Assembly: GCF_021474425.1 (NCBI RefSeq)
Contig: NZ_JAKEIP010000013.1
Coordinates: 1 to 64,000 of the forward strand
Source: Streptomyces muensis
Lineage (GTDB): Bacteria; Actinomycetota; Actinomycetes; Streptomycetales; Streptomycetaceae
DNA: 64,000 nt
Direction of reading: 5' to 3'
Part shown: positions 39,641-39,674 of the stretch, one piece after another
How positions within the stretch are numbered: the stretch's first letter is position 1
How the letters are laid out: each line of letters opens with the position of its first letter
The notes under the pieces: model-generated
The model's input: the letters and a program-made list of their open reading frames with translations, nothing else
The model's database searches: none
What the model was told of the DNA's origin: nothing
Translations under genes and position numbers: made by a program

Positions 39641-39674
39641 GAGTAGTAGTAGGGCCTGTGGATACCGTGGATAA
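39641..39674 (-). promoter_or_regulatory. Putative DnaA-trio unwinding element
   Basis: On the minus strand: two abutting boxes TTATCCACG and GTATCCACA, then GGCC, then CTACTACTACTC. This is the box - GC spacer - DnaA-trio order of the basal unwinding system defined in Bacillus subtilis and proposed for many bacteria. It lies at the dnaN edge of oriC, next to the least GC-rich part (39610-39650). Confidence 0.65.

What the first reader, a model, noticed from the sequence alone, without database searches (positions are those of the whole stretch)
39641..39674. DnaA-trio type unwinding element in a Streptomyces oriC
On the minus strand TTATCCACG-CG overlap-GTATCCACA-GGCC-CTACTACTACTC gives two adjoining boxes, a GC spacer and three to four TAG triplets (complement). 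This is the architecture of the bacterial basal unwinding system. It lies at the dnaN edge beside the least GC-rich part of the origin and predicts where strands open.
Basis: partly seen in the sequence, partly recalled or inferred. Interest (0 to 1): 0.72.

Follow-up and report, generated by a model that had tools for sequence, protein, structure and literature searches.

The report
DnaA-trio opening element in Streptomyces origin
A short repeat beside two DnaA binding sites in this Streptomyces replication origin is kept unchanged in the related genomes examined and is very probably where the DNA strands first open; more distant relatives carry the same element with a changed middle letter, which suggests a looser reading code than the one in print.

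Summary
Confirmed, with one correction: the two DnaA boxes abut, they do not overlap. On the minus strand the window reads TTATCCACG|GTATCCACA|GGCC|CTA CTA CTA CTC at the dnaN edge of oriC.

TAGTAGTAG-N4-TGTGGA occurs in 392 of 392 sampled genomes of the genus. TAGTAGTAGG is the only fully invariant 10-mer in an aligned 850-bp stretch of 132 genomes. The least stable DNA of the window's origin ends exactly at the triplets. DnaA keeps 8 of 9 trio-contacting residues. This is a basal-unwinding-system (BUS) element. Function is inferred; a published M. tuberculosis mapping put opening at the other end of oriC.

The larger result lies outside the window. Anchoring on boxes alone in 173 loci outside the window's family gave 124 box pairs. 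Behind them stand a 4-nt spacer and typically five triplets, mostly 3'-R(A/C)T-5' on the trio strand: the middle base is A or C, seldom G, rarely T. Cytosine-centred trios work when engineered in B. subtilis (PMC10721633). I found no report of natural ones in the open-access library searched; supplements were not readable.

The parts
39666..39674 (-). Outer DnaA box TTATCCACG
   Evidence: Sequence; one mismatch to TTRTCCACA
39657..39665 (-). Inner DnaA box GTATCCACA, directly abutting the outer one
   Evidence: Sequence. + strand letters TGTGGAAAC in 81, TGTGGATAC in 48, other in 3 of 132 genus loci
39653..39656 (.). 4-nt GC-rich spacer GGCC
   Evidence: Length constant in 132 of 132; letters GGCC in 83 of 132
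39644..39652 (+). Three DnaA-trios 5'-TAG TAG TAG-3' (3'-GAT-5' read away from the boxes); the trio strand is the + strand
   Evidence: Invariant in 132 of 132 aligned loci; in 392 of 392 genomes with spacer and box
39641..39643 (+). Degenerate fourth triplet GAG (CTC in sense)
   Evidence: In 132 genus loci: CTC 53, CGA 21, CTA 18, CTG 14, CCC 14, others 12, in sense
39602..39652 (.). Predicted first opened region, from the trios towards dnaN
   Evidence: Inference; least stable 20/30/40-bp windows of the origin end at 39652
39592..39600 (+). DnaA-box-like TTGTGCACA that bounds the predicted opened region on the dnaN side
   Evidence: One mismatch to TTRTCCACA; the 10-mer from 39592 has mean top-base frequency 0.992 in 132 loci
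38281..39411 (-). dnaN, the gene beside the element
   Evidence: Reading frame; GTG start at 39411 read and from Pfam PF00712 at 39058-39408
40363..41679 (-). dnaA, the initiator gene
   Evidence: Reading frame; matches 8btg DnaA at E 9.9e-140

Best explanation
It is the basal unwinding system of the Streptomyces chromosome origin. Two DnaA molecules dock on the abutting boxes at 39657-39674. ATP-DnaA then extends as a filament across the 4-bp spacer onto the + strand, each added protomer capturing bases of one triplet (3'-GAT-5' three times, then a weaker one). This holds that strand out of the duplex and opens some 50 bp towards dnaN, where helicase can load. In other Actinomycetota the same machine appears to read up to five triplets of the form 3'-R(A/C)T-5'. 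Shown here: anatomy, conservation, phase, low duplex stability, conserved DnaA contact residues. Inferred from the B. subtilis work: DnaA binding, filament, base capture, opening and its direction.
For: Exact pattern in 392 of 392 genus genomes, isolated control hits in 5. TAGTAGTAGG is the only invariant 10-mer in 850 aligned bp of 132 loci, mean top-base frequency of the stretch 0.755. In 20 loci of 16 other genera of the family (20 fetched of 66 such genomes found) all have TA[AG]TA[AG]TA[AG]-N4-TGTGGA, and the 8 variants read TAG TAA TAG, a change that keeps the middle adenine. Least stable DNA of the window's origin ends at the trios; in 127 of 132 genus loci the least stable 25-mer starts in the 20 bp on their dnaN side. 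E183, N187, I190, I193, R202, K222, E223, E228 of B. subtilis DnaA are kept. Outside the family, box-only anchors are followed in phase by the triplets: at least 3 of 5 fit in 87 of 124 sense pairs, 0 of 14 reverse pairs, 7 of 922 single boxes.
Against: No binding or opening was measured. In M. tuberculosis, opening by DnaA was mapped by permanganate to -500 to -518 from dnaN, the dnaA end of the origin (PMC2607554, abstract and passages). DnaA N196, which contacts the third trio base in B. subtilis, is G here. Genus genomes share ancestry, so 392 is not 392 independent events.
Confidence: 0.85

Rival explanations
1. The trios hold a DnaA filament, but first opening happens elsewhere in oriC (for instance at the dnaA end); the element only steadies the open complex or helps to load one helicase.
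For: The M. tuberculosis opening site lies at the dnaA end (PMC2607554). The Streptomyces origin has many other boxes (12 with at most one mismatch in 39412-40362).
Against: The trios are the edge of the least stable DNA of the origin in the window and in 127 of 132 genus loci. In six other species, boxes and trios were both needed for strand separation on short scaffolds (PMC8287927, section 14).
Confidence: 0.11
2. TAGTAGTAG is a conserved binding site or promoter part for dnaN or dnaA control that happens to abut two DnaA boxes.
For: The element lies about 230 bp upstream of dnaN, and other conserved blocks, possibly promoter, lie between (39502-39560).
Against: In other families the letters change but the phase, the 4-nt spacer and the orientation relative to the box pair stay, which fits reading by DnaA and not a fixed site of another protein.
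Confidence: 0.03
3. Chance or mere shared ancestry: a neutral repeat not yet mutated.
For: The genomes of the genus are related.
Against: Bases on either side have diverged while the 10-mer is invariant; the periodic pattern is seen with one locus per family in 36 families.
Confidence: 0.01

Closest known systems
Bacillus subtilis BUS: DnaA-boxes #6/#7 and DnaA-trios (PMC10721633, sections 10 and 11 and passages; PMC8287927, sections 13 and 14 part 1 and passages)
   Same: Two co-oriented boxes, short GC-rich spacer, at least three 3'-GAT-5' trios, low-stability DNA beyond; 8 of 9 contact residues of DnaA kept
   Different: B. subtilis DnaA engages six trios (PMC10721633); the window has three firm ones. 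Boxes abut exactly. In other Actinomycetota five triplets, often cytosine-centred, follow; DnaA residue 196 is G here
Predicted BUS set of 1755 of 2070 species (PMC8287927)
   Same: Same architecture; the window's element meets the published rule of three NAN trios within 16 bp of a box
   Different: That search required a middle adenine. 60 of the 124 box pairs examined here have at least three R(A/C)T trios but fail the rule in phase. Streptomyces is not named in the main text; supplements were not readable
Kocuria rhizophila oriC with DnaA-trio motifs (PMC12500396, passages)
   Different: The passages give no trio sequence, no conservation test and no comment on the middle base
M. tuberculosis oriC opening site (PMC2607554, abstract and passages)
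   Same: GC-rich actinobacterial dnaA-dnaN origin; DnaA- and ATP-dependent opening
   Different: Opening reported at -500 to -518 from dnaN, at the dnaA end, not at a dnaN-side trio array

Membership tests
Basal unwinding system (BUS) / DnaA-trio element | Co-oriented DnaA box or tandem pair next to the trios | tested here: met
   TTATCCACG and GTATCCACA abut, each one mismatch to TTRTCCACA
Basal unwinding system (BUS) / DnaA-trio element | Trios at most 16 bp from a box, usually 10-13 bp from the more conserved box (PMC8287927) | tested here: met
   4 nt from the inner and 13 nt from the outer box
Basal unwinding system (BUS) / DnaA-trio element | At least three in-phase NAN triplets, 3'-GAT-5' next to the boxes | tested here: met
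   3'-GAT-5' x3 in the window and in 132 of 132 genus loci
Basal unwinding system (BUS) / DnaA-trio element | DnaA with the trio-contacting residues | tested here: met
   8 of 9 residues identical to B. subtilis DnaA, N196 is G
Basal unwinding system (BUS) / DnaA-trio element | DnaA-dependent strand separation that needs both boxes and trios | not testable with these tools
   Bench assay; low duplex stability at the site is indirect support
Cytosine-centred variant of the BUS (proposed) | Natural trios with C in the middle, in phase behind a box pair | tested here: not met
   Not in the window's own copy, whose firm trios are A-centred. Fourth triplet C-centred (CGA in sense) in 21 of 132 genus loci and 14 of 20 family loci; at least one locus with two or more C-centred trios in 22 of 36 other families
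E. coli-type DUE with 13-mer repeats | AT-rich 13-mer repeats beside the box cluster | not tested
   No separate search was made; the least stable 20-bp window of the origin is 55% AT

The most novel reading that the evidence does not exclude
Actinomycetota use a relaxed DnaA-trio code. Behind two abutting boxes and a 4-nt spacer come up to five triplets 3'-R(A/C)T-5', the first mostly adenine-centred, the later ones more often cytosine-centred (3'-GCT-5' or 3'-ACT-5'). The amino group that A and C share is what DnaA Asn187 reads, as PMC10721633 showed with exchanged bases; here that exchange appears to be natural and long-standing in many families, and a search that demands adenine misses it. 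Streptomyces sits at the adenine end of this range with three fixed trios.
Probability: 0.75. Interest if true: 0.7.

Novelty: new variant of a known kind. Interest (0 to 1): 0.6.

Why it matters
The passages I read name no experimentally mapped opening site for Streptomyces oriC; it now has one sharply defined candidate that single-base changes can test. PMC10721633 raises the possibility that DnaA homologues read a range of single-strand sequences. The wider pattern gives a natural experiment on the base-capture model: many origins in which the middle base shifts between the two bases that carry the right amino group while the reading asparagine stays (76 of 77 readable loci). It also offers a more general rule (box pair, 4 nt, up to five R(A/C)T) for finding the opening site of GC-rich origins. 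The window's own copy is orthodox; 'variant' refers to the actinobacterial set to which it belongs.

Tried and rejected
A scan for a box with at most 2 mismatches plus at least three T-centred triplets (in sense) found few class loci. A plain search for [CT]TA x3 found 17 of 90 loci in sense and 0 of 90 on the reverse strand. A weight matrix trained on trio-bearing sequences then brought up the CGA/TGA triplets; being trained on triplets it was only a lead, and the counts reported come from a box-only score. That box score was written by me, with no triplet term in it.

Cytosine-centred trios do not rise with GC of the locus (Spearman 0.09, P 0.32); adenine-centred ones fall weakly with it (-0.26, P 0.004). 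DnaA residues 196 and 202 differ between lineages, but no clean link with a trio base was seen.

A whole-genome test of C-centred against G-centred triplets 2 and 3 gave 53 against 9 of 393 genomes. Part of the C hits are background: dnaN lies within 1.5 kb for 11 of the 20 loci fetched, and those 20 are part of 56 listed matches. Of the 9 G-centred hits I compared only three (G292, G201, G274) with a dnaN place; all three lie on another contig or about 1 Mb away. Other G hits were not checked.

Rows dropped: 174 class and phylum loci were assembled; one under 200 nt was dropped; 173 examined (148 of the class, 25 of other classes; paralogous dnaN genes away from an origin are among them); 124 passed the box threshold in sense, 49 did not. 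L312 (partial gene) and L313, L314 (genomes already held) were left out. In the genus set one locus per genome was kept (132). DnaA residues could be sought in 93 of the 124 loci.

The published BUS program was not run; I only applied its triplet rule next to my box pairs: in phase 31 of 124, in any nearby phase 37 of 124.

Papers: ten were opened (listed in the full report); PMC4913881 (Richardson 2016) is not held and nothing of it was seen. Supplements could not be read, so PMC8287927's tables may list Streptomyces origins. Novelty searches.

Full report
What was checked. Read from dnaA towards dnaN (minus strand) it is TTATCCACG, GTATCCACA, GGCC, CTA CTA CTA, CTC. It lies between dnaA (frame end at 40363) and dnaN (GTG at 39411), about 230 bp from dnaN. 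TAGTAGTAG occurs once in 64 kb against 0.01 expected; the full pattern occurs once even with 3 mismatches, against 0.00 expected.

Conservation in the genus. The origin was found in 121 of 121 sampled genomes; with 11 more genomes, 132 loci were compared. All 132 have TAGTAGTAG, a 4-nt spacer and a TGTGGA box. In an alignment of 850 window positions, TAGTAGTAGG (39644-39653) is the only 10-mer invariant in all 132; the mean top-base frequency is 0.755. A whole-genome search for TAGTAGTAGNNNNTGTGGA gave 392 of 392 genomes, with a control hit in 5. Of 80 named records, the 79 Streptomyces have CTACTACTA in sense and the one Streptantibioticus has CTATTACTA. Named and unnamed sets may overlap.

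Variation in the family. Twenty loci from 16 other genera were fetched, of 66 such genomes found. All 20 have TA[AG]TA[AG]TA[AG] before the 4-nt spacer and box. Eight read TAG TAA TAG, which keeps the middle adenine. The fourth triplet is CGA in sense (TCG on the trio strand) in 14 of 20 and the fifth CTA in 10 of 20; in the genus the fourth is CTC in 53, CGA in 21 and CTA in 18 of 132, and the fifth is mostly CCA, 91 of 132, which fits no trio rule. DNA alignments to many of the more distant genera begin at query position 83-84, that is at window 39642-39643, the edge of the trios; others begin at 62-71.

Stability. In the window's origin the least stable 20-, 30- and 40-bp windows are 39633-39652, 39623-39652 and 39613-39652. 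In 127 of 132 genus loci the least stable 25-mer starts within the 20 bp on the dnaN side of the trios. A nearly invariant TTGTGCACA at 39592-39600 closes the interval.

DnaA. Against the B. subtilis DnaA of 8btg the window's DnaA keeps E183, N187, I190, I193, R202, K222, E223 and E228; N196 is G (roles of the residues from PMC10721633, passages).

Outside the family. To avoid circularity I anchored on two abutting boxes with a score that contains no triplet term, in 173 dnaN-upstream loci (148 of the same class outside the window's family, 25 of other classes of the phylum). 124 have a pair at or above the threshold in sense, 14 on the reverse strand. Behind the sense pairs, family-weighted, A stands at offsets 6, 9, 12, 15 and 18 in 0.89, 0.83, 0.80, 0.71 and 0.65, and at offset 21 in 0.16: five triplets, then an end. 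At least three of the five are YKA in 87 of 124 sense pairs, 0 of 14 reverse pairs and 7 of 922 single strong boxes. A at the third place of triplets 1-5: 480 of 620, against a mean of 184 and a maximum of 218 in 2000 shuffles. With one locus per family: 32, 29, 27, 24 and 24 of 36, then 7.

The middle base. In triplets 2-5 that end in A, the sense middle base is G 188, T 124, C 46, A 9, that is C 188, A 124, G 46, T 9 on the trio strand. So 312 of 367 are the amino bases A or C, against 2486 of 5660 in the same loci outside the element (that control counts all frames and neither count is corrected for kinship). Triplet 1 ends in A in 113 of 124 and is T-centred in 103 of these. Asn187 is kept in 76 of 77 readable loci; position 202 is Q in 40, R in 25, K in 13 of 82. 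22 of 36 families hold a locus with at least two C-centred trios; in 15 such loci are the majority, and in 7 families loci with at least three A-centred trios are. PMC10721633 showed that C in place of the middle A separates strands at a rate similar to A in vitro and supports growth better than G or T in vivo; its discussion raises the possibility that homologues read a range of sequences (sections 10 and 11). PMC8287927's search demanded a middle adenine (section 13); 60 of the 124 pairs have at least three R(A/C)T trios but fail that rule in phase.

Results against. The one actinobacterial opening map that I could read, for M. tuberculosis, is at the dnaA end (PMC2607554). Seven f31 loci have a box pair followed by TTA AC(A/G) and no trio array, and the six readable ones have A or T at DnaA position 228. 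Four loci of f11 and f12 and nine of f21 gave no pair above threshold; several f21 loci show TTACTACTACTA some 14 nt after a single box, which the box-pair rule misses. f9 and f13 pairs mostly carry only one or two fitting triplets. CCA is seen in triplets 3, 4 and 5 in 12, 11 and 6 of 124, so the A/C rule is a strong preference, not a law. Family names behind the f-codes are unknown to me.

Literature. Opened: PMC8287927 (section 13, section 14 part 1, passages), PMC10721633 (sections 10 and 11, passages), and passages only of PMC6669920, PMC4285127, PMC13270200, PMC3411110, PMC2607554 (with abstract), PMC12500396, PMC10225481 and PMC5043019. PMC12500396 already names DnaA-trio motifs in the Kocuria origin, so trios in an actinobacterium are in print. 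Searches listed no paper whose title or abstract start deals with the Streptomyces trio or with natural cytosine-centred trios; the full texts of most listed papers were not opened.

Verdict. The window's element is a genuine BUS by anatomy, orthodox in its letters. The actinobacterial set to which it belongs is a variant with a fixed geometry and an A-or-C middle base. Function is inferred from anatomy, conservation and the B. subtilis work.

Noticed in passing
window about 41385-41420, inside dnaA (40363-41679): The window's DnaA lacks the long linker (domain II): it runs ...ITVDDSAGEPTARLNPKY. Of 29 close relatives read, 27 have a proline- and alanine-rich linker before GPGEPTARLNPKY and 2 could not be read. 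Real deletion or assembly collapse in a 669-contig draft; not decided.
   Followed up: partly
window 39502-39560: A second highly conserved block (around CAGTCTGACG and GGGGTCAAGTCG) between the trios and dnaN; on the minus strand it contains TTGACC, perhaps the dnaN promoter.
   Followed up: no
window 39901-39917: TTGCCGAACAGTGGACA in the middle of oriC is about 99% conserved in 132 genomes and is not a plain DnaA box.
   Followed up: no
window 39684-39712: Conserved CAG(C/G)TCAG and a T tract running into TTGTCCAC on the dnaA side of the box pair; TTTT(A/G)TCCAC is kept in most family loci shown.
   Followed up: no
L145, L147, L150, L157, L303, L304, L305 (family f31), just upstream of dnaN: In place of trios the box pair is followed by TTAAC(A/G)CC/CT.., and DnaA position 228 is A or T in the six readable loci where 86 of 92 readable loci of the set have E: a lineage that may open its origin differently.
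   Followed up: no
G047 (genus genome): By my reading of the table the only one of 392 genus genomes with two copies of TAGTAGTAGNNNNTGTGGA; the second could be chance or a second replicon origin.
   Followed up: no
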